A stretch of DNA of 64,000 bases from Steinernema hermaphroditum (taxonomy: Eukaryota; Nematoda; Chromadorea; Rhabditida; Steinernematidae). The notes below the pieces were generated by a model. That model worked only from the letters and a program-made list of their open reading frames with translations. It did not search any database and was not told the DNA's origin. This document shows, piece after piece, positions 889 to 38,050 of this stretch (position 1 is the stretch's first letter; each line of letters opens with the position of its first letter). The stretch lies in assembly GCA_030435675.1 (NCBI GenBank), contig CM059621.1, positions 12,896,001 to 12,960,000 of the forward strand. The letters are read 5' to 3'. The translations under genes and the position numbers were made by a program.

Positions 889-2140
889 ATGATGCTGCAG
901 CTGGCGGTGATCACCTTCGGCATCTTCGGACTCGGCACTTTCGGGATATTCGGCAATCTGAACATCATCTTCGCGACGCTCCGCTCCAAGGAACTCAAAT
1001 CAAAGTGCGGTGAGTGGCCGAGCCTTCCTCCAGAACCACAGCCTCCTTCAGGCATTCTGATCGGCATCCTCGGCTTCTGCGATCTCACCTGCATCGTCTT
1101 CGAGTGGCAGAATGCGGCGCGTCTCCTCCTCGGGGTGCAGTCCTGGCGTCTCTCCTGCTTCATCTTCATGACGCCCTACATGTTCATGATCAACTTCCAG
1201 AGCACCATGATCCTTGCCGTCGCCCTGGACCGCTTCTTCGCCATTATGTTCCCCATCAAGTAGGATCCGGGTCCGTTTTGTCCTTCTTAACTGATTCAGA
1301 TGTCGTGTGATTCAAACTAGGACCTACATCTTGGCCATGATCACTCCTGGTGCGCTCTACGGCGTGGGAATCGTCATCGCCGGCTACGTCTACATGATAG
1401 ACGAACCGATAGAGGTGTGCAACCCTCCTCTCGGGTTCCCTCCGAACGTCAGCATTGCGTGGAACCGCATTACCATCTCCATCAACTTCGCCGTCCTGTT
1501 CGTCTACCTCTGCGCCATACTCGGCCTCAAGTACAAAGGCAAGTTCTCACGGCTGTGTGAAGAAAACAAGAGTCGCCAAATTTTCCGAAAAACTGCTTAA
1601 ACATTCCCGCCGTGGCCACTTTTTTCACAATCTACGTATGTGGGCTCACGCACTTACTCTCACGCTCTGCAATCCAACCAAAACATTACGAGCAACTTTT
1701 TCAGTAAAATTCGGAGACGGCAACGGCAATGGAAAGTCGTACTACCGCCATCAGCAGGCGATCATGAAAAATCTCAGCGTCATGATCATCTTCTTCATCC
1801 TTTCTTGGTTCGTTTGCCACGCGGCCGTCCTCATCGTCACCTTATTCAACTTCGGAGGCGAGGCTATGCTCCACATCGCTCAGTCCACGGCGGTAGGCAA
1901 CACTGTGGACTCTAATCTAACGAGGAGCCTCAGGTGATTCCGGCGATGCTCTGCTACAGTCAGAACTTCTACATCTACTTCTGGCGCAGCGACATGTACC
2001 GATCGATCTTCAAGAAGCAGCTTCTCCGCTTGGTGAAGTGCGGCAAGCATTCATCCCAGGTATACACCACCGAAGGGGTCACCTCGAAGTTCCACTCCCC
2101 GAGCTTCTACAGTAGCCGAGGAACCGAATCACGAACGTGA
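889..2140 (+). CDS. srsx-class chemoreceptor (7TM GPCR), copy 1
   Basis: Five exons: 889-1009, 1052-1259, 1300-1538, 1705-1892 and 1934-2140, 320 residues, all phases consistent and no internal stop. Seven hydrophobic segments are visible. TM1 carries GN, and TM3 ends with DRFFAI at about residues 100-105 (the DRY position). A Cys at the top of TM3 and one in the second extracellular loop (EVCNPP) can pair. TM7 ends NFYIYFWRS. Length and motif order fit the nematode srsx family of presumed sensory-neuron chemoreceptors. Intron 3 begins GCAAGT, not GT: a GC-AG intron, supported because the paralog at 8756 splices at the same codon with GT. Exons 1-2 are nearly identical to that paralog, while later exons differ. 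The ligand cannot be told from sequence. Confidence 0.85.
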
Positions 2141-8755: not shown

Positions 8756-9856
8756 ATGATGCTGCAGCTGGCGGTGATCACCTTCGGCATCTTCGGACTC
8801 GGCACTTTCGGGATATTCGGCAACCTTAACATCATCTTCGCGACGCTCCGCTCCAAGGAACTCAAATCGAAGTGCGGTGAGTGGCCGAGTCTTCCTCCAG
8901 AACCCCAGCCCCCTTCAGGCATTCTGATCGGCATCCTCGGCTTCTGCGATCTCACCTGCATCGTCTTCGAGTGGCAGAACGCGGCGCGTCTCCTCCTCGG
9001 GGTGCAGTCCTGGCGTCTCTCCTGCTTCATCTTCATGACGCCCTACATGTTCATGATCAACTTCCAGAGCACCATGATCCTTGCCGTCGCCCTGGACCGC
9101 TTCTTCGCCATTATGTTCCCCATCAAGTAGGATCCGGGTTCCTTTTTTTCCCTCGAGACTGATTCAGATGCCGTATGATAAAAACGTGGACCTACATTTT
9201 GATCATGATGGCTCCCGGTGCGCTCTACGGTGTGGCTATCGTCATCGCCGGCTACGTCTACATGGTAGACGAACCGATAGAGGTGTGCAACCCTCCTCTC
9301 GGGTTCCCTCCGAACGTCAGCATCGTGTGGAACCGCATTACCATCTCCATCAACTTCGTCGTCTTGTTTGTCTACATTATCACTATTTTTGCGCTCAAAT
9401 ACAAAGGTACATCTGAGACAGGTCTGCGAGAAACAATACACTTTATTTAGTATCCCACGTGGCGATATCTGCGAAGCACTACTACCGGCACCAGCAGTCG
9501 ATCATGAAGAATCTCGGCGTGATGATTCTTTTCTTCTTCTTCTCCTGGTTCATCGCCCACGCCTCTGTTCTCATCGTGACCTTCTTCAACTTCCAGGGCG
9601 ACGCTATGCTCCACATTGCTCAGTCCACGGCGGTAAGGCATCCTGGGGTTCTAAAGCTGACAAATCCACTCAGGTGATTCCGGCGATGCTCTGCTACTGT
9701 CAGAACTTCTACATCTACTACTGGAGGAGCAATCTTTACCGACCGATTTTTGAAAAGCAGATCCTTTCGTGTGTGAAGTGTGGAAAGAGTCCCGTCCAGG
9801 TTTATGCGACCGAGTCGCTGAACTATTTCGGAAGTAGAGGGTCTCGTCTCTCGTAG
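8756..9856 (+). CDS. srsx-class chemoreceptor (7TM GPCR), copy 2
   Basis: Five exons: 8756-8876, 8919-9126, 9168-9406, 9451-9632 and 9674-9856, 310 residues, all phases consistent. The architecture matches the 889 copy: GN in TM1, DRFFAI after TM3, EVCNPP in extracellular loop 2, NFYIYYWRS after TM7. Introns are 41-44 bp with standard GT-AG ends. Its third intron is 44 bp against 166 bp (GC-AG) in copy 1. The loop after TM5 and the C-terminal tail differ most from copy 1, so G-protein coupling and trafficking regions have diverged while TM1-TM3 are nearly identical. This is a functional-looking paralog, not a pseudogene. Confidence 0.85.
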
Positions 9857-20041: not shown

Positions 20042-22447
20042 TTAGTCACTTCTCTTGTTGCGCTCCTCGATCTGCGCCGCATCGACTTCTGCTCGAAGGC
20101 GCGCGAAGTCAATCGCTTCGTCATCGGCAATGGCGTCCTATAGTAACCCCCTCAGGAAAGGCATGGAATTCTTGCTTACATTGTTCAGAAGCGCTGATGG
20201 GTCGTCGCTCGCCTCGACGGGCGCGTGGTGCATCTTCTTCGCCTTCTTGCTGAACTTTGTCGCCATGTTCTTGTAACGAAGACAGCACGTCTGTGGGGCG
20301 CACTGAACGTAACCCGGCTGGCACTGGCAGGGGTCGCCACATTGGATGGTCAACTGCATAGTCGGAGCAGAGGGCACCACTGGAAGAAGATATTTTGGGA
20401 AGGAAAATTTTGATAGATAGATGTTTCCTTTTCCAATGTGATTTCACCCATCACCAGGTCCGCAATTCACCACCACCTCCACCGTAACCCAACCACCACC
20501 TCCACCAAGGTCGCTCTGAGGGAAGGACTCTTTATACAGACAGCGGACAATATCGGATGGACAATAAATATCTCTTTCGGTGCGAGACCGCCTCCACCAG
20601 GACCAGAAGCTCTGCGTTTACTTACCGAAAGCGGCGTTGCATTGAGGTTGACAAGCGGGCATGCACTGAGGGGCGCACTGCTGGATGACGGGCACCTGGA
20701 TCTGCTGGATGCACTGTGGCTGGCACGCAGGCATGCACGCCTGGACGCACTGCTGCTGGATCACAGGGATTTGGATCTGCTGGACACACTGGGGCTGGCA
20801 CGACGGCATGCACTGAGGAGCGCATGTTGGCATCTGAAGGGTACTGTAGGTCGGAAGGGACGTCGAAGGATGTACCTGGATCTGGACGGCCTGGATCTGG
20901 ATCTGCTGGACACAAGCAGGGGCGCAGGCGGGACGACACTGTTGAGGACAAGTGGCCACGATCTGTTGGACACATTGGGGCTGACAAGCGGGCATGCAGG
21001 CCGGAGCGCACTGCTGGACGACAGGCTGCTGGACGATCACCTGGATCTGCTGGACACATTGGGGCTGGCATGAGGGCATGCACTGAGGAGCGCAGACCGG
21101 CCGCGGACCACACGCAGAGGGGCAGTTGGAGCTGCAGCTATTGCACATCTGCATCTGGACGCACTGGGGCTGACAAGAAGGCATGCAGGCCGGGGCGCAC
21201 TGTTGCTGCATGACGGGCTGCTGGATGATTACGGTAGTCTAGAATGGGAGAGAGCGTCTAGGGATGTGGTGCCCTTGCTTACCTGTTGCTGCATACAAGT
21301 AGGTGTGCACGAGGGCATGCAAGAAGGCTGGCACGTGGGGATCACCGTCTGGACGCACTGAGGTTGGCAGGCGGGCATGCAGGCCTGCACGCACTGCTGC
21401 TGCACGACGGGCACCTGGATCTGCTGGATGCACATGGGCTGACACGCAGGCATGCACTGCGGCATGCAGGTCTGCTGGACCTGCAATTCTTAGGTCTTCA
21501 AGAGACGACAGGCCTGACGACACACCTGGACTTGGACCGACTGGAGGCACTGAGGCTGACAAGACGGCATGCAGGCGGGAACACAGGTGGCCTGAGGACG
21601 GACCTGGATCACCTGGATCTGCTGAACACACTGTGGCTGGCAGGCAGGCATGCATTGGGGCGCGCACTGCTGGACCATCGGGGGTGGCTGGATGACGACC
21701 TGGAACTGCTGAACGCAGGCCTGAGTGCACATGGGGAAGCACTGCTGGGGACACTGTTGCTGCACGGCGATCTGGAGGCACTGGGGCTGGCAGGCAGGCA
21801 TGCACTGAGGTGCACACATCGGAGGCGGCGGAGGAGGACAGCCGCCACATCCACAGTTCCCGGTGGGACAGACGCTGCAGCACTGACGCTTCCGACGGAC
21901 GAGAGCCGCCTTCAGGGAGGAGAGGCGCTCGCCGAGGGCCTTCGTCGAGGACTCGAGCGAATCGGGTTTCTGGAAGGGACGAATCGGGTGCTGACAGAGG
22001 ATAACAGTGAATGAAGCCGTACTGAGGCGAGTCATAGTGATCGTGGATGAGACTTATCAGAGCAAAAGGAGAAGAGCTTTCAAATATGAAAAAGGGGCCA
22101 GTAGGACCCTCTGCGTCTGTCTAGCAGACAGACCCTGCAGAGAGTGGAAATCATTTTTTCGAGCGGATCTGCCCGAAATCGGTCGGTTTCCCATTTCTTT
22201 CCTTTTCGTTTCATTTTGCATTTTATAGCACTTCAGACGAAAAAATGAAGTAATTTTTTGAAAGAGCTTAAAGTGTAAAGTCCAAGTCCTAATTGTACTG
22301 TTCTATAGTGTCGAAAAATTCAAACCTAATGCCTCGTAGGGCAGATCCACATCCTACAGTAACCCACTGTACCTTTTCGTCTTCAGCGGAGACAGAGGCG
22401 AGAACGAGGAGTGCGGCGAAGAGCAACCGTAAAGCGTCCATCTTCAT
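20042..22447 (-). CDS. Secreted Cys-rich QC-repeat protein with two furin-type sites
   Basis: Six exons on the minus strand: 22447-22373, 21969-21526, 21480-21283, 21238-20626, 20379-20180 and 20137-20042, 541 residues. Exon 1 supplies the signal peptide (MKMDALRLLFAALLVLASVSA) and joins in phase 0 to a short propeptide that ends RRKR (residues 50-53) directly before QCC. The core is a long series of CxPxCMPxCQPQC units spaced by hydrophobic Gln/Val/Ile stretches such as VQQIQV. The C-terminal region carries CQCQPGYVQCAPQTCCLRYKN, also found in the 26042 gene, and the chain ends RNKR-SD. A GCTTCAG acceptor lies 7 bases before the ATG. Likely an extracellular, heavily cross-linked or matrix protein; the function is not known. 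An ATG at 22035 opens the same region but lacks a signal peptide, so I prefer the upstream exon. Confidence 0.85.
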
Positions 22448-24019
22448 GGCGTTTCTGAAGCGAACTTCTAAGTCAGAACGCCACCACGGGAGCGGCAAAC
22501 CTGAGATTGGAGCGCTGAGGAGTGACCGCGATTGGAATGAATGTCCGTAGGCCCCTCCTCACTTTTAAGTAGCCGTCGGGGAAAGTTTTTGCGCCACGAG
22601 GAGAGCGCAGACGGCGGCGGGGCGTGTCCACTCCCGGCGGCCTTCGGAGGCCCGCGGCTGTTTGCGTCGCTTTTTTCGTCTTTGAAGCGCCAAGTTGGCC
22701 CAGCCAGGCTGGAACTGGATTGGCCAAAACACAGCGGTGATTCAGCGCTGTTTGCGTCCACAGAAGTCGTCTGCCGGTGACGTCGCCGTCGACAAACACT
22801 CATAAGGGGCTAATGGACTTGCAAGTTCTGTACGCGTCGCGTGAGTTCGTGTTGAGGGGTTCGCTCGGGGCCGACGACCTGACCGCGCAAAAACTCTCTT
22901 GATCCCCTTGATGGCGCGGTTTGGCGCTTACAAGTGGAATGCACCTTCGAGTGTTTTTGGTTTGCAACGAAGACTCTTCGTTTTCGGATGTAAAGATTCG
23001 AACATCTCTCAGAGGGAAGAATATAACTGAAGATCGGAATGTTCTTTGAGCGCTGGCGATAGGGCGTAACGTCCTGTATGGCTTCGGCTCAGCAAAGTGC
23101 AAGGGTATGTGTCAATAGACCTTGCTACAAGTGGTTAAAGGCCAGTTTCGACCTAGCTCGTCCTGAAGGTACCAAACGGAATAAAAGTTGATCGACTCGG
23201 TGCCAAATCACAAATGCATCAAAAAAGATAAGGCTTCGAGACGTTTCTTAAAATTAGTCGCCACGGCCGCGAGCACTTCCTCGCTGATTCGGACCCACGC
23301 CAGCTTCACAGTGCCCAAATTAGTGTGCCAAACTAGCGAGACTTCACTGTCCAGGATTCTCGAGATGGCATAGTCCAGTTCAAGCCATGACTATTCGAGG
23401 ACCGTATCTCCCCACATCTTGAAGCAGTCCACCTTTGAGACCTCCATCGATAATTTCGATCCATGCGCCGTAGATCGAGAAAATCTGGTCATCCGCTAAC
23501 AGGCGTCGTCGGATTCCTCTGCTCGACGAAGAATTCTAAGAATAGTCTCGAAGCCTGTATCGGCGCTGCAGGTTGCCATTTCGAATTCGAACAATTCCAC
23601 GTATTATAGTTGAATACATCAAGTTTTAATCCAGCAAGATAAGCTCATTTTGATGCGTTAAGGAACTTTTGCACCACCCTGGAGAATCCTGTGGACATAG
23701 TCTCATTGGCCATCGGAATTATAACAGTGACAAGTTAACCGTGGTTCTGAACATCCATGATTATATCTCGACTTCAAAAACTCAATTTTCTGAGAACTTG
23801 TGTGTCCTAATTGGCCCTTTCACACAGCTCACACTTCGCTCTCTCCGTTTGACATCTGCAAAGACCCTGTTTTGACAGACTTCAGTATCACTTTCGTCGC
23901 AACAATGGATCTTCGCGTCGTATCTGTTTTCCCTCCGCGCGCACTTCAGTGGCGCCCCCTCAGCTGCGTTCCCCGTGGACACAAACACTGTCGTCCCCTC
24001 TTTACACACGTTAAATAGT
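22448..24019. other. Intergenic, no gene seen
   Basis: Includes a GC-rich block (22540-22920) upstream of the QC-repeat gene that probably holds its promoter. No exon chain was found in the remainder. Confidence 0.45.
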
Positions 24020-24863
24020 TCACAAAAAGTGTTTCAACGCGTCGTTTGGCCGCATGGCGATGAGGGCGCGCTTCTTGCGTCCGAATCCGAAGCCCATTCC
24101 GCAGCCTCCCATGCCACAGCCCCCGCGCATGCACATAGGCATGCACACCGGCATGCAGCAGCCACAGCACGAGACGATCGGAGGGGGAATCACAGGCATG
24201 CAGCAAGGCTGAAAACGGGGTTATGAGGGCCATGGGTCGAGTGACGTACAGGGGGAATGGGAGGGGGAAGCATGGGTTGGCAGCACATCGGCATCGGAGG
24301 CGGGATCGGGGCGCAGCAGCCGAAGCCGCCCCACTGGCGCTTGGCTCGAAGGTGTCCGAGGGCCGTTGTTGTCGGTTCTGTGACGACGGCGAGCTGAAGA
24401 CAGTAGATGAGTAAACGGGGGAGCGGATCTCAAGAATGCCATGTTTTCTATTCTGGGCATCGACCCAGCTTTGTGTTTTGAACTATGCGCTGAGATGGTT
24501 TGCAGCTGGACTTGCAGCGGGGCGTACTTTGCACTCTCCACCCTAAGTAAATAAGCTCAGATGTGCAAAACGCAAACAGATCTGCACGCGTAATCGAGGA
24601 TAGATATGTATCCAAATTGTCCCTGATCTAATCTGTTAACCCTTCTTTTGAGCCGAACTAGAGGTGAGAAACTGGGAAACTACGTTTACACAAACGGGCT
24701 CTTACTCTTATCGGTAAACCGAAAAAATACGGTAACATACCGCAGTTTCCAAGACAGCCGACGCTTGGGGCTCCGTGGAATTCCATCGCGGCTCCACTGT
24801 GACGTCCAGATCGAAAGCGTCGATTGTGAGGGCCAAAGAGAAGAGAAGGCCGATAACAAACAT
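24020..24863 (-). CDS. Secreted Cys/Met/Gly-rich protein, furin-processed, possible amidation
   Basis: Three exons on the minus strand: 24863-24741, 24393-24250 and 24208-24020, 151 residues, all phase 0. A signal peptide (MFVIGLLFSLALTIDA) leads a propeptide ending RAKR (57-60), directly followed by QWGGFGCC. The core is built from CC pairs, MPxC and Pro runs and a GGCGMGGCGMGFGFG tail. Then GRKKR (132-136) is followed by a 15-residue C-terminal extension. Gly before the basic site is a possible C-terminal amidation signal. Cutting both sites would release a peptide of about 71 residues with 14 Cys. Same prepro layout as the genes at 22447 (-) and 26042 (+). Role unknown; antimicrobial or matrix functions are guesses. 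Confidence 0.8.
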
Positions 24864-26041
24864 GGTGTGGGGGTACTGTGGATATGACGCATGCGTATCC
24901 TTATGCGCAATTTATATCTGCTCGGATTCGACCCATTTGGGTCAAGAGGACTCAGTCCATATGCAAATTGTTTGTTTGCACTTTCACTCATCCGAAGCTG
25001 GTTTGGACGCGGTCTCGCGTCCAGGATCTCCTCCTCGGATCGCTGTTTCAACCGCACAGCGCAAACAGAGATCGCGCGGAGGTGACAGCGATGCGTCGAG
25101 AAGCTTCGTGTGTTGCTTTCACAATGGCCTCTGTTTCGAATCGAAGCTGCAGGACGCGGCTAATGTGTCACTTGAGTGGACGGCGAACGCGAAGAAGCAG
25201 GAGGGATCGCTTGGTCAGGGGGCAAGAAGCTGAGGTTGTGGGAAGCAGGGATGTTCTACGCAAAAGCGTAAAGGACAACAAGGAAATCACTTTTGATGAC
25301 CCTGAAATCTATGTGACCCAATACCTAAGTGTTACTTTTCTCATTTCTGTAAATCACTAGAGCAGCATTCGACACATCTTTTCCGTTTTTAAAATCACAG
25401 TGGTCTCCGTTTCTAGCTGTTCACAGTCTCACAGAATGGTGTGGAGAAGCTGTCCAAGCTGTACAAAAGCAGGACAAAAAGAATGGCCCTTTTCAACAAA
25501 CCGTCCCGACTAAGAACCCAATGAACCTTGGAAAGAATGTAGGAGATCAAACAAAGAAGTAAACCTTGTGCTCTTGTTTCAAGTTCTAACATGCACGCAC
25601 ACAAAACGGGCCGTTCTTAGGGAGTTCCTAGAATATTGCAGGCAAATAATATACTCTCCAAAAACAGTTCAAATCCTAATCTACCTCCAAACGATTGTTT
25701 GTCATTCAACACCTCCAAAATCGCCAAAATCCGTTTGTTTGTTCTGTGCGAACACTATTGTCCGAACACCTTCTCGACGTTCCCTCGTCCGGTCCCCTCG
25801 AGAATGCGGCGACGTCCAGGTAAAGCAGGTAATCGGCCCTCAATCGTCTTTCCGCCCTTCGGACTTTTTCTGCATCCGGATTACGCGCATTTCTGCGGCA
25901 TGAGTCAACACCGGAATCCAGATCGACGCGGAACCAGCTCCGGCCGGGAAGCGAGTCTTGGGAGGGGCCGCCGGCGTCAAAAGTCGCCAAACTTCGACGG
26001 TACTTAAGGTGAATTCGGCGTGGAAGGGGCAAACCGCGGCT
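24864..26041. other. Divergent intergenic region between two Cys-rich genes
   Basis: About 1.2 kb separates the divergently transcribed 24863 (-) and 26042 (+) genes, so it likely holds both promoters. Open frames in it show no domain or splice chain. Confidence 0.45.
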
Positions 26042-27716
26042 ATGCACTTCCGACTCGTCCTCCTCCTCGTGTTCTTCGTCTCCTCCTTTGCGGTATCCCC
26101 CGATAGCCTTGGACTTCTTAAAATCGTCCCTTTAGGAGGAGTCAAAAGTGGTGGTGCGAGGAAAGAGACAGAACTGCGGAGCTTCGGGATACTGTGGATC
26201 GACCTGCTGCGTCACCATCGAGATCCAGACCCCAGGTAACACCCGCAGAAAAACAGCCCTAACCACTTACTTTAAGTCGTTCAACAACAGCTGTGCTGCC
26301 AACAGCCCGGTATGAATGGGTCAAATCCGCTTACGGTAGTGTAAACAAGTCTTTTCAGTCGTTCAGCAACCGTCTTGTGTTTGCGCGCAGCCGCAACAGG
26401 AACCCTGCTGCCAGCCTGTTGTCCAGCAGCAGCCGTCTTGTGACTGCCAGCCTGGTAAGGGAGGAAAACATTAGGCGTTTTAGAGTAATTGGCTAAGGGT
26501 CAGTTCATAGATTTGATGAGAAAAAGATATAGGATAGAGACAAGGCCGAGGAATCTGGCCACTATTCACATTTCGGCTCAAGTTTAGCTTAAAGCGCAGT
26601 TTACGTCAGCACTCCCCATACAGTGAACATTGCAGGAGAACATTACAACATTACAGTGAACATTGAACATAAGACAACATTACTCACTAACTACTGTACT
26701 AATTCCTTGCAAAAACATCGCCATTGTTTTCAGTCCAGCAGCAACCGTGTTGTCAACAAGTTCAACCTTCGTGCGACTGTGCCCCGGTCCAGCAAACTTC
26801 GTGTTGTCAGCCAGTGAAATGTCAGCCCGCCTGTGGTTGTGTCGCCGTTCAGCAACAGCCGGCTTGTGATTGCCAGCCTGGTAAGTCATACCACTAGAAC
26901 TTGGATTGATTGTCATTTCAGCTGTGCCACAACAACCGTGCTGCCAGCCCGTCCAACAGCCTAGCTGCAGCGACTGTCTTCCAGGTACGGAACTAAAATT
27001 TAGTATTCATAGCCTTCCCTTTAACATTTCCTGACTGGAAGTTTAGGAGAACTCATCTAATTATGCACTCAAATTCACCTGCTCGGAATTTATCTGTTCT
27101 TTTCAGTGCAACAAGAACCTTGCTGCCAACCCGTCCAACAACAGACCGCCTGCACCGATTGCCTTCCAGGTACAATTCGAACAAACGTGCAAACACTATG
27201 CAAAAATATCTCGTTAATCTCCAAACTTTGTCAGTTTGGCCCAAGGTCAATGTTTGTGACCTAAAATGGAACCAGAAAGAAGCTGACGTTTAGAGTACTA
27301 ACCGAACTTTATTGATTAGTTCAAAACGAAACAACCCCATTTTAGTCCAACAGGAACCCTGCTGCCAACCTGTCCAGCAGGTGCCGTCCTGCAACGACTG
27401 TCAGCCAGTCCAACAAGCGCCCTGTTGTCAACAGAGCCAGCCCCAGGCCGCCTGCAATGATTGTGCCCCTGTCCAGCAGCCCTATTCAGTCGATGTCCAA
27501 GTGAGCCTCCAGTGTCCCCCCGCCTGCCAGCCCTCGTGCAATCCTACCTGCTCCCAGCAGGCCCAGGCCGTGCAGACGCAGTTCGGTCCTGCCACGCAGA
27601 CATGCGATGCCAACGTCTGCGTCTGTCAGCGTGGATACGTCCAGTGCGCTCAGCAGACCTGCTGTATTCGCTACAGATACACCCAGCAGGGACGAAAGCG
27701 CCGATCGCTGAACTGA
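26042..27716 (+). CDS. Secreted Cys-rich CCQP/QQ-repeat protein with symmetric phase-1 exons
   Basis: Eight exons: 26042-26092, 26136-26235, 26277-26309, 26359-26454, 26734-26880, 26922-26984, 27107-27169 and 27346-27716, 307 residues. A signal peptide (MHFRLVLLLVFFVSSFA) is followed by a short propeptide ending RGKR (25-28), then QNCG. The core repeats V-Q-Q-x-P-C-C-Q-P-V-Q-Q with SC-DC units. All introns after the first are phase 1, each interrupting the P-G/V/A junction after a C-x-P, so each repeat exon can be gained or lost in frame. The C-terminus carries CVCQRGYVQCAQQTCCIRYRY, homologous to the 20042 gene, and ends RKRR-SLN. The 33-bp third exon is the least certain. Function unknown. 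Confidence 0.82.
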
Positions 27717-28202: not shown

Positions 28203-29369
28203 TCACAAATGATAGCTACACAATCTCATCATCACCTCCTTTCTCAATTCGTTGTGACGGAACGTATAGATAAACAGATTGATGACAGTCTTTAGAAGAG
28301 ACGCCCTACTGAAGATGAGATGGTGCGCTCTTAGTTGGAACAAATCGAAGTTGATGATGATGTCGGGGATGAAGAGCAGCACAAGGTCACTGAGGCAGGT
28401 TAATCCTAGAGAAAACATCGCGGATCCGCCATGGGAAGGGCTGTTACCTATGGTCACGGAGAATCTGATATTTGAGTTGTTCTGTGTCACAGAGTTGAGA
28501 GGTTGCTGAGAGCCTCCTTGGGGAGTGGCGGAGTTCGACGTCGAGATGAAGACGGCCTTTTTCTGCGCGTTTGAGATGGCCACTTTGAGTTGGAAGATTC
28601 GAATGGTGATAGGCAGATAGAGAGCGATGCCAAGACCCGTGGCGGCGAGTCGAATGGTCATCAAGAGGTTGGCGACTATCGGGGGATAGACGAAGGCGGA
28701 GTAGCAGAAGGCGTTGATGAGGGTGTTCGGAGGCGATGTGGCGATGATGTAGAAGTAGACAGCAAGATGGAGGAGGAAACAGAGAAGAAGGCACGCTGAA
28801 AGGACAGGAGTAGATGGCATCCAGAAGGTCAAAAAATCAAGCTGTTTTGAACCACTTAGGAGATCGCTTTGTTCAAAGAGCATTTCCATTACCTATCATT
28901 GTGAAAATTAGCTTTCTTCTCGTGACTGAAGTGTAGAAGAGAGGCAAGAAAACGACTATAAAGCGCTCACACGAAACCAGGAGGATCATGATTCCGACCA
29001 GCAGCTGCGCATAGAAGAAGACCACCACATAGTAAGTGAAGAAACACGCCATCTGGGGCACCAGGGTATCTGTAGGTGATGATCGGGTGCTGTGCCGTCG
29101 AGAACGCCTACCTGTGCCGTTCGGGAAGCTTATGAGTCTGTCTATAGAGGCTATCGAGTTGAAGAGGGCGCAGAAGACGTCGACGGCGCAGAGTCCGCCA
29201 ATGAGGACGAGCTCCTTGTACTTCTTGATCGCCTTTGAGGTGAAGATGACGACGATGGCGGGGACGTTGATCAAGGCTACGGTAAAACCTAGAAAGAGGT
29301 GAGAAGAGAAAGCACTTCAGATATACCTATGATGGCGAAGATGGTCATCTCAACGGGATTCGCCGACAT
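28203..29369 (-). CDS. Nematode rhodopsin-like chemoreceptor (7TM), tandem copy A
   Basis: Five exons on the minus strand: 29369-29327, 29288-29112, 29069-28893, 28795-28448 and 28405-28203, 315 residues; every intron is phase 1. The seven segments include KELVLIGGLCAVDVFCALF (TM2), CFFTYYVVVFFYAQLLVGIM (TM3) followed by CERFIVVFLP in the DRY position, FVYPPIVANLLM (TM5), and LKTVINLFIYTFRHNELRKE (TM7 and helix 8). The third intracellular loop is long and Ser/Gln/Asn-rich. An in-frame stop precedes the ATG. The layout equals the next gene at 32278. It is related to, but not the same as, the srsx genes here; the class is not assigned. Confidence 0.82.
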
Positions 29370-36749: not shown

Positions 36750-38050
36750 CAGGGTGTTCAGAAAGTTCTGTGAAATTTCTGAGTGGTCTATTTTCGCAAG
36801 TTTTTTGGCGTCCGCGCAAATTTTCAATGTTTTATTCGCGTTTATCAACTCTATTTACCCTATGTTCACTGTTATTCATACTGGTATTCACTGTTATTCA
36901 GAAACAAAATGGTCTCGGAAAAATTGCGTTCCACCATCGTCGAGCTCCACTGTGCTGGGAAGTCAAACCCTGACATCTGCAAGGACCTCAAACTGCACCC
37001 AATTATGGTCAAGCGGGTGTTAGATCGATTTGAGGACACTGGTGGGATCAAGGACCGTCCCCGAAGCGGAAGACGGAAGACCGCCAGAACTTCAAAGGTC
37101 CGAAAACTGGTCCGACAAAAAATTAAGCGGAATCCTGAGCGTTCGATCAGAATGCTGGCGAGGGACCATGGAATCAGCATTGGATCCATGTATAAGCTTA
37201 TTACAGATGATCTACAGCTCAAGAGCTGCAAAATTAGACGTGGCCAGCTTCTGACGGACCATAAAAAGAAGGAAAGGCTGGAAAAATGCAAAAAGCTGAA
37301 GGCCGAGGCACGGGGGTCTGGATTTTCGAATGTTATCTTTTCAGATGAAAAGATTTTTACAATCGAAGCGATCCACAACAGCCAGAATCACCGCCAATTG
37401 CTGCCGGAGGGCTCTCCACGTACGAAGCGCGTGGAAAGAAGTCATTTCCCCAATTCTGTGATGGTGTGGGGCGGAATCTGCGTAAAAGGCAAAACTCCGC
37501 TGGTTTTTGTCGATAAAGGCGTGAAAATTAACTCTACTGTGTATCAAGAACAGATCCTGGCGAAGCATCTGATTCCCTGGGCCCAAAAACACTTTCCAAA
37601 CCATGATTGGGTGTTTCAGCAGGACTGGGCGCCCGCCCACGGATCGAATTCCACACTGGCCTTCTGCAAGGACCAAATCCCGCAGATGTGGGGCAAAGAT
37701 ATTTGGCCCTCCAACTCACCGGATCTGAATCCGATGGACTACGCAATTTGGTCCATTCTGGAGGACAAGGCCTGCCGAAGACGACACACCACCATAGACT
37801 CCCTGAAGAGAGCGCTGAAGCAAGCCTGGGAAGAAATTAGTGTGGAAACCCTTGCGTGCATCGTGGGAAATTTCAAGAAGCGTGTTCAGGCCTGCATCAA
37901 CGCCGGAGGCGGCCATTTCGAGTGATACTCATTTTGATTATGTTCAATTTTGCGTGATGAATAAGGTAGTCTTGTTTGTTTTCCGAAATTATTGTGTTTT
38001 CTATTGAAAAAATCGTTCTTTTCATTTCACAGAACTTTCTGAACACCCTG
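36750..38050 (+). mobile_element. Intact maT (mariner/Tc1 DD37D) transposon, 1301 bp
   Basis: Perfect 27-bp terminal inverted repeats (36750-36776 and 38024-38050, starting CAGGGTGTTC) are flanked by a TA duplication at 36748-36749 and 38051-38052. Removing the element and one TA restores an exact 192-bp satellite monomer. The transposase frame is uninterrupted. Identical TIRs and an intact frame point to a recent insertion, possibly a mobile copy. Confidence 0.95.
36909..37925 (+). CDS. maT-type transposase (DD37D)
   Basis: A single exon of 338 residues. The N-terminal half holds two helix-turn-helix regions (about 5-45 and 75-115) separated by RPRSGRRKT, the GRPR-like AT-hook linker typical of Tc1/mariner. 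The catalytic triad is D146 (FSDEK), D239 (FQQDWAPAH) and D277 (SPDLNPMDY). The 37 residues between the second and third Asp define the maT (DD37D) group, between mariner DD34D and Tc1 DD34E. VMVWGGI lies before the second Asp as in the superfamily. Start chosen at the ATG giving MVSEKLRST; an upstream in-frame codon at 36783 would add 42 residues lacking family similarity. It cuts and pastes the element at TA sites. Confidence 0.95.
   Translation: MVSEKLRSTIVELHCAGKSNPDICKDLKLHPIMVKRVLDRFEDTGGIKDRPRSGRRKTARTSKVRKLVRQKIKRNPERSIRMLARDHGISIGSMYKLITDDLQLKSCKIRRGQLLTDHKKKERLEKCKKLKAEARGSGFSNVIFSDEKIFTIEAIHNSQNHRQLLPEGSPRTKRVERSHFPNSVMVWGGICVKGKTPLVFVDKGVKINSTVYQEQILAKHLIPWAQKHFPNHDWVFQQDWAPAHGSNSTLAFCKDQIPQMWGKDIWPSNSPDLNPMDYAIWSILEDKACRRRHTTIDSLKRALKQAWEEISVETLACIVGNFKKRVQACINAGGGHFE

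What the first reader, a model, noticed from the sequence alone, without database searches (positions are those of the whole stretch)
20042..27716. Cluster of three co-processed Cys-rich secreted proteins with a shared double-furin prepro design
All three genes at 22447 (-), 24863 (-) and 26042 (+) encode a signal peptide, a short propeptide, an R-x-K-R site (RRKR, RAKR, RGKR) followed directly by Gln, a very Cys-rich core, and a second R-x-(K/R)-R site near the C-terminus (RNKR, RKKR, RKRR). Gln at the new N-terminus could cyclise to pyroglutamate, and Gly before the second site in two of them could be amidated. Furin-like convertases cut at R-x-K/R-R. That three otherwise different cores keep both sites in one 7.7-kb cluster suggests one extracellular system processed together, perhaps matrix or a defence secretion.
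Basis: partly seen in the sequence, partly recalled or inferred. Interest (0 to 1): 0.78.

Follow-up and report, generated by a model that had tools for sequence, protein, structure and literature searches.

The report
Nematode cysteine-rich cuticle proteins, furin-cut
Three neighbouring worm genes make cysteine-rich secreted proteins, probably building blocks of the throat lining, that start with a detachable piece ending in a furin-type site; this front site is a trait of the wider gene family, while the second site near the end is backed by relatives in only one of the three, a small and apparently undescribed protein kept across many nematodes.

Summary
Spliced models of the three genes give signal peptide, propeptide, R-x-K-R|Q, Cys-rich core, and R-x-(K/R)-R near the end. 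The window is Steinernema hermaphroditum.

Genes 1 and 3 have homologous C-terminal modules; gene 1 is a Pfam C_tripleX protein, the ABU/PQN (APPG) type found in the C. elegans pharyngeal cuticle. The first site is a family trait, not a property of the cluster: three unlinked CxxxCxxxC-repeat genes on two other contigs have the same build, signal exon, phase-0 intron, R-x-K-R|Q, and five gene-1 relatives of other species keep R-x-K-R (then Q in three, N in two).

The second site differs. In gene 1 it is absent from those five relatives and leaves two residues; in gene 3 it leaves three and cannot be tested. In gene 2, 11 of 12 homologues (nine named genera) keep G-R-(K/R)-K-R, far more conserved (0.93) than its flanks (0.28, 0.35).

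Verdict: one member and one probable member of a known kind, plus one apparently undescribed, conserved, double-site microprotein. Cleavage, pyroglutamate, amidation and pharyngeal location are inferred.

The parts
20042..22447 (-). Gene 1: secreted C_tripleX (ABU/PQN-like) protein, 527 aa (541 aa if the 42-nt intron 20834-20875 is retained). Exons 22447-22373, 21969-21526, 21480-21283, 21238-20876, 20833-20626, 20379-20180, 20137-20042
   Evidence: models; P0001, deposited model that contains these 527 residues; PF02363, E 7.9e-09
21886..21897 (-). Gene 1 first convertase site RRKR, followed by QCC
   Evidence: R, K, R invariant in 6 of 6 rows of A1
20051..20062 (-). Gene 1 second site RNKR, two residues from the end; not conserved in 5 of 5 relatives of other species
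20264..20338 (-). Gene 1 C-terminal module (CQCQPGYVQCAPQTCC), homologous to that of gene 3
24020..24863 (-). Gene 2: secreted Cys/Pro/Gly/Met-rich microprotein, 151 aa. Exons 24863-24741, 24393-24250, 24208-24020
   Evidence: family alignment A2
24337..24348 (-). Gene 2 first site RAKR, followed by QWGGFGCC
   Evidence: 11 of 12 homologues
24068..24079 (-). Gene 2 second site RKKR, preceded by Gly, followed by a 15-residue C-peptide
   Evidence: 11 of 12 homologues
26042..27716 (+). Gene 3: secreted Cys/Gln-rich protein, 296 aa, 7 exons (26042-26092, 26136-26235, 26359-26454, 26734-26880, 26922-26984, 27107-27169, 27346-27716)
26157..26168 (+). Gene 3 first site RGKR, followed by QNCG
27693..27704 (+). 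Gene 3 second site RKRR, preceded by Gly, three residues from the end; no relative to test it
27618..27665 (+). Gene 3 C-terminal module CVCQRGYVQCAQQTCC
24864..26041 (.). Shared upstream region of the divergent pair gene 2 / gene 3; 3 high-affinity and 3 medium PHA-4/FoxA-type heptamers (weak evidence)
   Evidence: site classes

Best explanation
The three genes encode structural proteins of a secreted, disulfide-rich apical matrix, most likely the chitinous lining of the pharynx and mouth. Each is made as a prepro-protein. The signal peptide takes it into the secretory path; a furin/PCSK convertase of the BLI-4 type then cuts after R-x-K-R and removes the propeptide. That exposes Gln (sometimes Asn) at the start of the Cys-rich low-complexity core and lets the core condense and crosslink outside the cell. 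Gene 1, and probably gene 3, are built in the ABU/PQN (APPG) manner. Gene 2 is a small companion protein that must lose both ends, the N-propeptide and a conserved C-peptide of 15 to 24 residues, so that its assembly is gated twice. Shown: gene models (computed), sites, conservation, homology of modules, shared exon design. Inferred: cleavage, the enzyme, N-terminal cyclisation, possible C-terminal amidation in gene 2 (Gly before the site), disulfide crosslinking, the tissue.
For: Gene 1 hits Pfam PF02363 C_tripleX, E 7.9e-09 with 11 stretches, has 29 overlapping CxxxCxxxC (0 of 2,000 shuffles reach this) and 13.7% Cys. The published marks of APPG proteins are at least 9% Cys, one or more CxxxCxxxC and, in 27 of 29, a signal sequence (PMC4232772, section 6). 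Relatives of gene 1 in Ancylostoma, Haemonchus, Strongyloides, Parastrongyloides and one unnamed source (P0002-P0006) keep R-x-K-R before [Q/N]CC: R50, K52, R53 invariant in 6 of 6 rows. Genes 1 and 3 share a homologous C-terminal module. Three unlinked repeat genes of the same genome (L010 on C4, L029 and L030 on C5) read signal-peptide exon, phase-0 intron, R-x-K-R|Q, as do genes 1-3; L030 is above Pfam's C_tripleX cut-off. Gene 2 family: first site with Q in 11 of 12 homologues, second site in 11 of 12, both in 10 of 12; second site mean pairwise identity 0.93 against 0.28 and 0.35 in its flanks, 11 of 13 rows used. CxxxCxxxC in 13 of 13 rows of the gene 2 family. Furin-site cleavage gates secretion of C. 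[quoted passage not shown] PMC13225626, passages).
Against: No expression data. The PHA-4 consensus TRTTKRY is not enriched upstream; only high+medium heptamers between genes 2 and 3 stand out mildly (6; 15 of 629 windows reach it), and not upstream of gene 1 (3; 106 of 630). Pfam does not recognise genes 2 and 3, nor the unlinked gene L029, and scores L010 just below the cut-off (21.4 against 22.9 bits). Gene 2 is not Q/N-rich (3.3%), and only 4 of its 12 homologues reach 9% Cys. CxxxCxxxC in gene 3 is no more than its composition gives (586 of 2,000 shuffles). Not all relatives have the R-x-K-R|Q junction: of 16 hits to gene 1, P0008-P0011, P0014 and P0015 have no R-x-(K/R)-R, and P0013 and P0016 have one not followed by Q or N. 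The structure of the gene 2 homologue P0017 was predicted with low confidence (mean pLDDT 50.8). No C. elegans sequence was compared.
Confidence: 0.68

Rival explanations
1. One reading: one dedicated extracellular system in which all three proteins are cut at both ends and act together, the cluster being the functional unit.
For: Both motifs are present in all three proteins within 7.7 kb; genes 2 and 3 form a divergent pair with a 1.2-kb shared upstream region.
Against: The first site is shared with unlinked genes; the second site of gene 1 is missing in 5 of 5 relatives of other species, and those of genes 1 and 3 lie 2-3 residues from the end, where shuffles of the last 20 residues give such a motif in 437 and 963 of 5,000.
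Confidence: 0.12
2. Gene 2 is a signalling or antimicrobial peptide precursor: N-terminal pyroglutamate and C-terminal amide (from Gly before R-(K/R)-K-R) cap a 72-residue peptide, and the conserved C-peptide may be active too.
For: Gly directly before the second site in the 12 rows that have the site, and Q after the first in the 12 that have that one (window gene included); tail conserved at 0.35 against 0.16 for the N-propeptide.
Against: The region before the site is Gly-rich in any case; the core has the CxxxCxxxC spacing of cuticle proteins; the linker is of variable length and often proline-rich, unlike a folded hormone; the predicted model shows no confident fold.
Confidence: 0.15
3. 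Gene 2 and gene 1 are one gene: the deposited model P0001 (770 aa) joins them.
For: P0001 contains gene 2, then 92 other residues, then gene 1.
Against: The 92 residues lie between the two genes and the join passes over gene 2's stop; the gene 2 homologue of S. glaseri (P0017) ends at the same place, homologues in other genera are separate short proteins, and gene 1 relatives are separate proteins.
Confidence: 0.03

Closest known systems
ABU/PQN paralog group (APPG), C_tripleX (PF02363), C. elegans pharyngeal cuticle proteins (PMC4232772; PMC9629831)
   Same: Signal peptide, at least 9% Cys, Q-rich (genes 1, 3); many CxxxCxxxC and a PF02363 match (gene 1). Unlinked genes of the same genome with such repeats have the same R-x-K-R|Q junction (L010, L029, L030) and, in L010 and L029, the same C-terminal pattern.
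   Different: Genes 2 and 3 fall below Pfam detection; gene 2 is Pro/Gly/Met-rich, not Q-rich, with two overlapping CxxxCxxxC and a conserved second site. The words furin and proprotein do not occur in the main text of either paper.
C. elegans cuticle collagens with an N-terminal consensus furin cleavage site (BLI-4 substrates; PMC10538796, PMC11304992)
   Same: Apical matrix proteins with an N-terminal R-x-x-R whose cleavage is needed for secretion.
   Different: No Gly-X-Y repeats; the core is Cys/Gln/Pro repeats; the site is the stricter R-x-(K/R)-R followed by Gln.
ZP-domain matrix proteins with a C-terminal furin-like site (PMC11304992, passage)
   Same: A C-terminal convertase site whose cleavage permits assembly: the analogy for gene 2.
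   Different: No ZP domain was found (no Pfam hit); gene 2 also has an N-terminal site.
IDPB family of Cys-rich disordered pharyngeal cuticle proteins (PMC9629831)
   Same: Cys-rich, low complexity, expected in the same matrix.

Membership tests
APPG / ABU-PQN (gene 1) | PF02363 C_tripleX repeat(s) CxxxCxxxC | tested here: met
   PF02363 E 7.9e-09, above curated cut-off; 29 CxxxCxxxC
APPG / ABU-PQN (gene 1) | At least 9% cysteine and Q/N-rich | tested here: met
   13.7% Cys, 21.6% Q+N
APPG / ABU-PQN (gene 1) | Signal sequence | tested here: met
   Read by eye from the sequence: hydrophobic N-terminus ending SVSA; no predictor was run
APPG / ABU-PQN (gene 3) | CxxxCxxxC repeat, PF02363 | tested here: inconclusive
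   Two overlapping CxxxCxxxC, 586 of 2,000 shuffles reach this; no Pfam hit at E <= 1; but C-terminal module homologous to gene 1
APPG / ABU-PQN (gene 3) | At least 9% Cys, Q/N-rich | tested here: met
   15.9% Cys, 24.3% Q+N
APPG / ABU-PQN (gene 2) | Q/N-rich | tested here: not met
   3.3% Q+N; therefore not filed as a member
APPG / ABU-PQN (gene 2) | CxxxCxxxC and at least 9% Cys | tested here: inconclusive
   CxxxCxxxC in 13 of 13 family rows; 9.3% Cys in the window gene, but only 4 of 12 homologues reach 9% (6.5-11.3%); no PF02363 hit
APPG / ABU-PQN (all three) | Expression in pharyngeal cells in the moult, product in the pharyngeal cuticle | not testable with these tools
   No expression data at hand; upstream PHA-4-type sites give weak and mixed support
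APPG / ABU-PQN (all three) | Closer in sequence to the 29 C. elegans APPG proteins than to other PQN proteins | not tested
   No C. elegans sequence was listed by the searches
Furin/PCSK substrate, first site | R-x-(K/R)-R after the signal peptide, conserved | tested here: met
   gene 1: 6 of 6 rows; gene 2: 11 of 12 homologues; gene 3: present, no relative to test conservation
Furin/PCSK substrate, second site | R-x-(K/R)-R before a C-peptide, conserved | tested here: inconclusive
   gene 2 met (11 of 12); gene 1 not met (0 of 5 relatives of other species); gene 3 not testable
Furin/PCSK substrate | Cleavage shown | not testable with these tools
   needs protein chemistry

The most novel reading that the evidence does not exclude
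The gene 2 family is an unrecognised class of nematode matrix microprotein that is liberated by two convertase cuts, leaving a Gln-first (pyroglutamyl) and possibly amidated Cys/Met-rich core plus a conserved free C-peptide; with the R-x-K-R|Q-bearing C_tripleX proteins it forms a convertase-gated assembly programme for the pharyngeal lining, parallel to the collagen programme of the body cuticle.
Probability: 0.35. Interest if true: 0.6.

Novelty: new variant of a known kind. Interest (0 to 1): 0.42.

Why it matters
How the chitinous pharyngeal cuticle is assembled on time and outside the cell is poorly known. A conserved R-x-K-R|Q junction in its sticky low-complexity proteins offers a simple answer that can be tested by point changes: they are kept inert until a convertase trims them, as cuticle collagens are. 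The gene 2 family adds a small protein, found in nine named nematode genera, with two conserved cut sites and no function that I could find; a search for four of its motifs in the held library of 5.39 million open papers found nothing. It has a relative in Caenorhabditis bovis, so a genetic test in a laboratory Caenorhabditis is likely to be feasible.

Tried and rejected
Homologues of gene 3: none at E <= 0.001 among 7,992 candidates; its repeats matched nowhere else in the genome at E <= 0.01. Family count by PF02363 in the genome: nothing rang, nor in the 14 controls, so uninformative. Solved structures: no match for A1 or A2. Structure of the gene 2 family: low confidence, so no fold search was made. 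Pfam on the gene 2 family: four families, each in one of 13 members, that look compositional. NCBIfam on the gene 1 family: none. Pharyngeal promoter sites: consensus not enriched, strong sites only mildly. Locus L013 was fetched for a DNA match to gene 3, but the match (window 27123-27284) covers mostly intron and no related protein frame was seen. Locus L011 holds another gene with such repeats and the C-terminal module; its N-terminus was not modelled. Locus L031 (C5) holds a long Cys-repeat frame, a weak C_tripleX match (E 0.046, below cut-off); no R-x-(K/R)-R-(Q/N) frame was seen in the 7 kb scanned. A fused gene 2 + gene 1 (P0001) was considered and rejected.
Full report
What is there. 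Models with intact frames and GT..AG introns were built for the three genes. P0001 (770 aa) holds gene 2 letter for letter, then 92 residues, then gene 1 without the 14 residues of a probable further 42-nt intron (20834-20875). The join of the two genes is probably an annotation artefact: homologues of each part stand alone.

Chance. Shuffling the N-terminal regions (signal peptide left out) gives R-x-(K/R)-R-Q in 23, 3 and 6 of 20,000 shuffles for genes 1, 2 and 3. In the last 40 residues shuffles give R-x-(K/R)-R in 111, 162 and 465 of 5,000, and in the last 20 in 437, 296 and 963. In the whole window seven stop-to-stop frames of 50 or more residues hold R-x-(K/R)-R-(Q/N): these three and four others, none of the four Cys-rich. 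So the first sites need an explanation; the second ones need support from relatives.

Gene 1. It matches Pfam C_tripleX (E 7.9e-09), with 13.7% Cys and 29 overlapping CxxxCxxxC. Of 16 hits in the protein search, P0001 is the gene itself; P0002-P0006 cover 88-99% of the query and show 34-44% identity in the multiple alignment. All five keep R-x-K-R before the first cysteines, three with Gln and two (Strongyloides, Parastrongyloides) with Asn. None has R-x-(K/R)-R near its end; P0005 ends KEKRD. P0007 and P0012 also have R-x-(K/R)-R|Q near the N-terminus. P0008-P0011, P0014 and P0015 have no R-x-(K/R)-R, and P0013 and P0016 have one not followed by Q or N. P0008 is named partial; that others of these are different sub-families or poor models is my reading.

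Gene 3. No protein hit at E <= 0.001, no Pfam hit, and its repeats matched nowhere else in the genome. Residues 227-286 are homologous to the C-terminal module of the gene 1 family (54 aligned columns, hhalign probability 97.1, E 6.7e-11, 48% identity). The pattern CxCxxGYxxCxxxxCC is in genes 1 and 3, in 11 of the 16 hits to gene 1 (P0001-P0006, P0009-P0012, P0015) and in the unlinked genes L010 and L029.

The design is a family trait. Three genes with CxxxCxxxC repeats on other contigs were found by searching the genome with gene 1 repeats and gene 3's module. Each shows a signal-peptide-like exon, a phase-0 intron and then R-x-K-R|Q: L010 (C4) RAKR|QCC, L029 (C5) RAKR|QQC, L030 (C5) RRKR|QIGC (acceptors and phases by script, donors read by eye from the printed sequence). 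Pfam C_tripleX is above its cut-off in L030 (32.6 bits), just below in L010 (21.4 against 22.9) and not reported in L029, although L029 is visibly made of such repeats; a missing Pfam hit therefore says little for gene 3. Genes 1-3 have the same order and phase (exon 1 of 75, 123 and 51 nt). The unlinked genes end ...RRRHRVAKAKTA...CCRK and ...CKRRKF, without R-x-(K/R)-R near the end. Thus the front site is not evidence for a special cluster. For two more loci of this kind (L011, L031) no N-terminal model was made, so three of five such loci were modelled.

Gene 2. A search found 12 homologues at E <= 10, the worst at 3.7e-4: Steinernema glaseri, S. carpocapsae, Panagrellus, Panagrolaimus, Nippostrongylus, Trichostrongylus, Auanema, two Pristionchus, Diploscapter, Caenorhabditis bovis and one unnamed. 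R-x-K-R|Q(W/F)GG is in 11 of 12 (not in P0027, whose N-terminus looks mis-modelled), G-R-(K/R)-K-R in 11 of 12 (not in P0018, whose tail looks out of frame), both in 10 of 12. Leaving out P0018 and P0027 (11 of 13 rows used), mean pairwise identity is 0.16 in the N-propeptide, 0.68 at the first site, 0.25 in the linker, 0.77 in the core, 0.28 in the Gly stretch, 0.93 at the second site and 0.35 in the tail. A five-residue island at 0.93 between stretches at 0.28 and 0.35 is what a conserved cleavage site would give. The core keeps CxxxCxxxC in 13 of 13 rows. In this genome one intact copy and a degenerate partial copy of exon 2 on C2 were found.

Mechanism. Inference from known families: the APPG proteins are made in pharyngeal cells, induced at the moult, and two tested ones localise to the pharyngeal cuticle (PMC4232772; abstract and sections 6, 9 and 15 read); cysteine-, proline- and glutamine-rich proteins of the pharynx peak when the new cuticle is built (PMC9629831, section 11 and passages). 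Cuticle collagens are cut at N-terminal R-x-x-R, BLI-4 being the main enzyme known, and changing the site blocks secretion; [quoted passage not shown]). Many ZP proteins need a C-terminal furin-like cut for assembly (PMC11304992, passage). Put together: the propeptides keep the sticky Cys-rich cores inert in the cell; a convertase removes them; the cores condense and form disulfides outside. Gene 2 needs two cuts. Pyroglutamate at Gln and amidation after Gly are possible and untested; Asn in Strongyloides relatives of gene 1 shows that Gln is not essential there. An ABU-14 protein with GFP fused to its C-terminus is found in the cuticle (PMC4232772, passage), which agrees with no C-terminal cut in that protein.

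What is not in print, as far as searched. 'Furin' and 'proprotein' do not occur in the main texts of PMC4232772 and PMC9629831; their supplements were not seen. Four papers hold both 'pharyngeal cuticle' and 'furin'; I looked at passages of two (PMC13225626, PMC11304992) and saw there no mention of a convertase site in ABU/PQN proteins; PMC4395870 and PMC13181417 were seen only in the listing. Searches joining furin with ABU and R-x-K-R with ABU gave nothing on such a site. Gene 2's motifs give no paper. Most subscription papers are not in the library.

Limits. No expression or protein data; no C. elegans sequences compared; no synteny outside this genome; signal peptides judged by eye; the upstream PHA-4-type sites are weak: TRTTKRY not enriched (237 of 630 and 82 of 629 windows reach the counts), TGTTTGC 2 and 2 in the two regions against 22 in 64 kb (41 of 630 and 54 of 629 windows reach this), high+medium set 3 (106 of 630) and 6 (15 of 629) (site classes from PMC523228, passages).

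Noticed in passing
window 20042-24863: The deposited protein P0001 (QR680_018135, 770 aa) fuses gene 2 and gene 1 through 92 residues that lie between them; probably an annotation artefact. Gene 3 itself did not turn up in the protein search, so it may be missing from, or very differently modelled in, the deposited set.
   Followed up: partly
window 27123-27284 (end of exon 6 and intron 6 of gene 3); C1:16240250-16240413 (L002, L013): A stretch, mostly intron, is 86% identical to a place 3.3 Mb away: perhaps a dispersed repeat inside the gene.
   Followed up: partly
L012 (C2:16706953-16707012 and around): Degenerate partial copy of gene 2 exon 2 in which the first Arg of the first site is changed.
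   Followed up: partly
window 36783-37922 (+): 380-aa open frame with HTH, paired-box and DDE_3 matches (only the paired-box match reaches Pfam's cut-off): looks like a Tc1/mariner-type transposase.
   Followed up: no
window 28876-29316 (-), 9281-9853 (+), 1413-1934 (+): Pieces that look like serpentine chemoreceptor genes (Srsx type; two of the three below Pfam's cut-off).
   Followed up: no
L011 (C1:17574500-17580000): Another gene with such repeats and the CxCxxGYxxCxxxxCC module, like P0009-P0011 and P0015, which lack R-x-(K/R)-R.
   Followed up: partly
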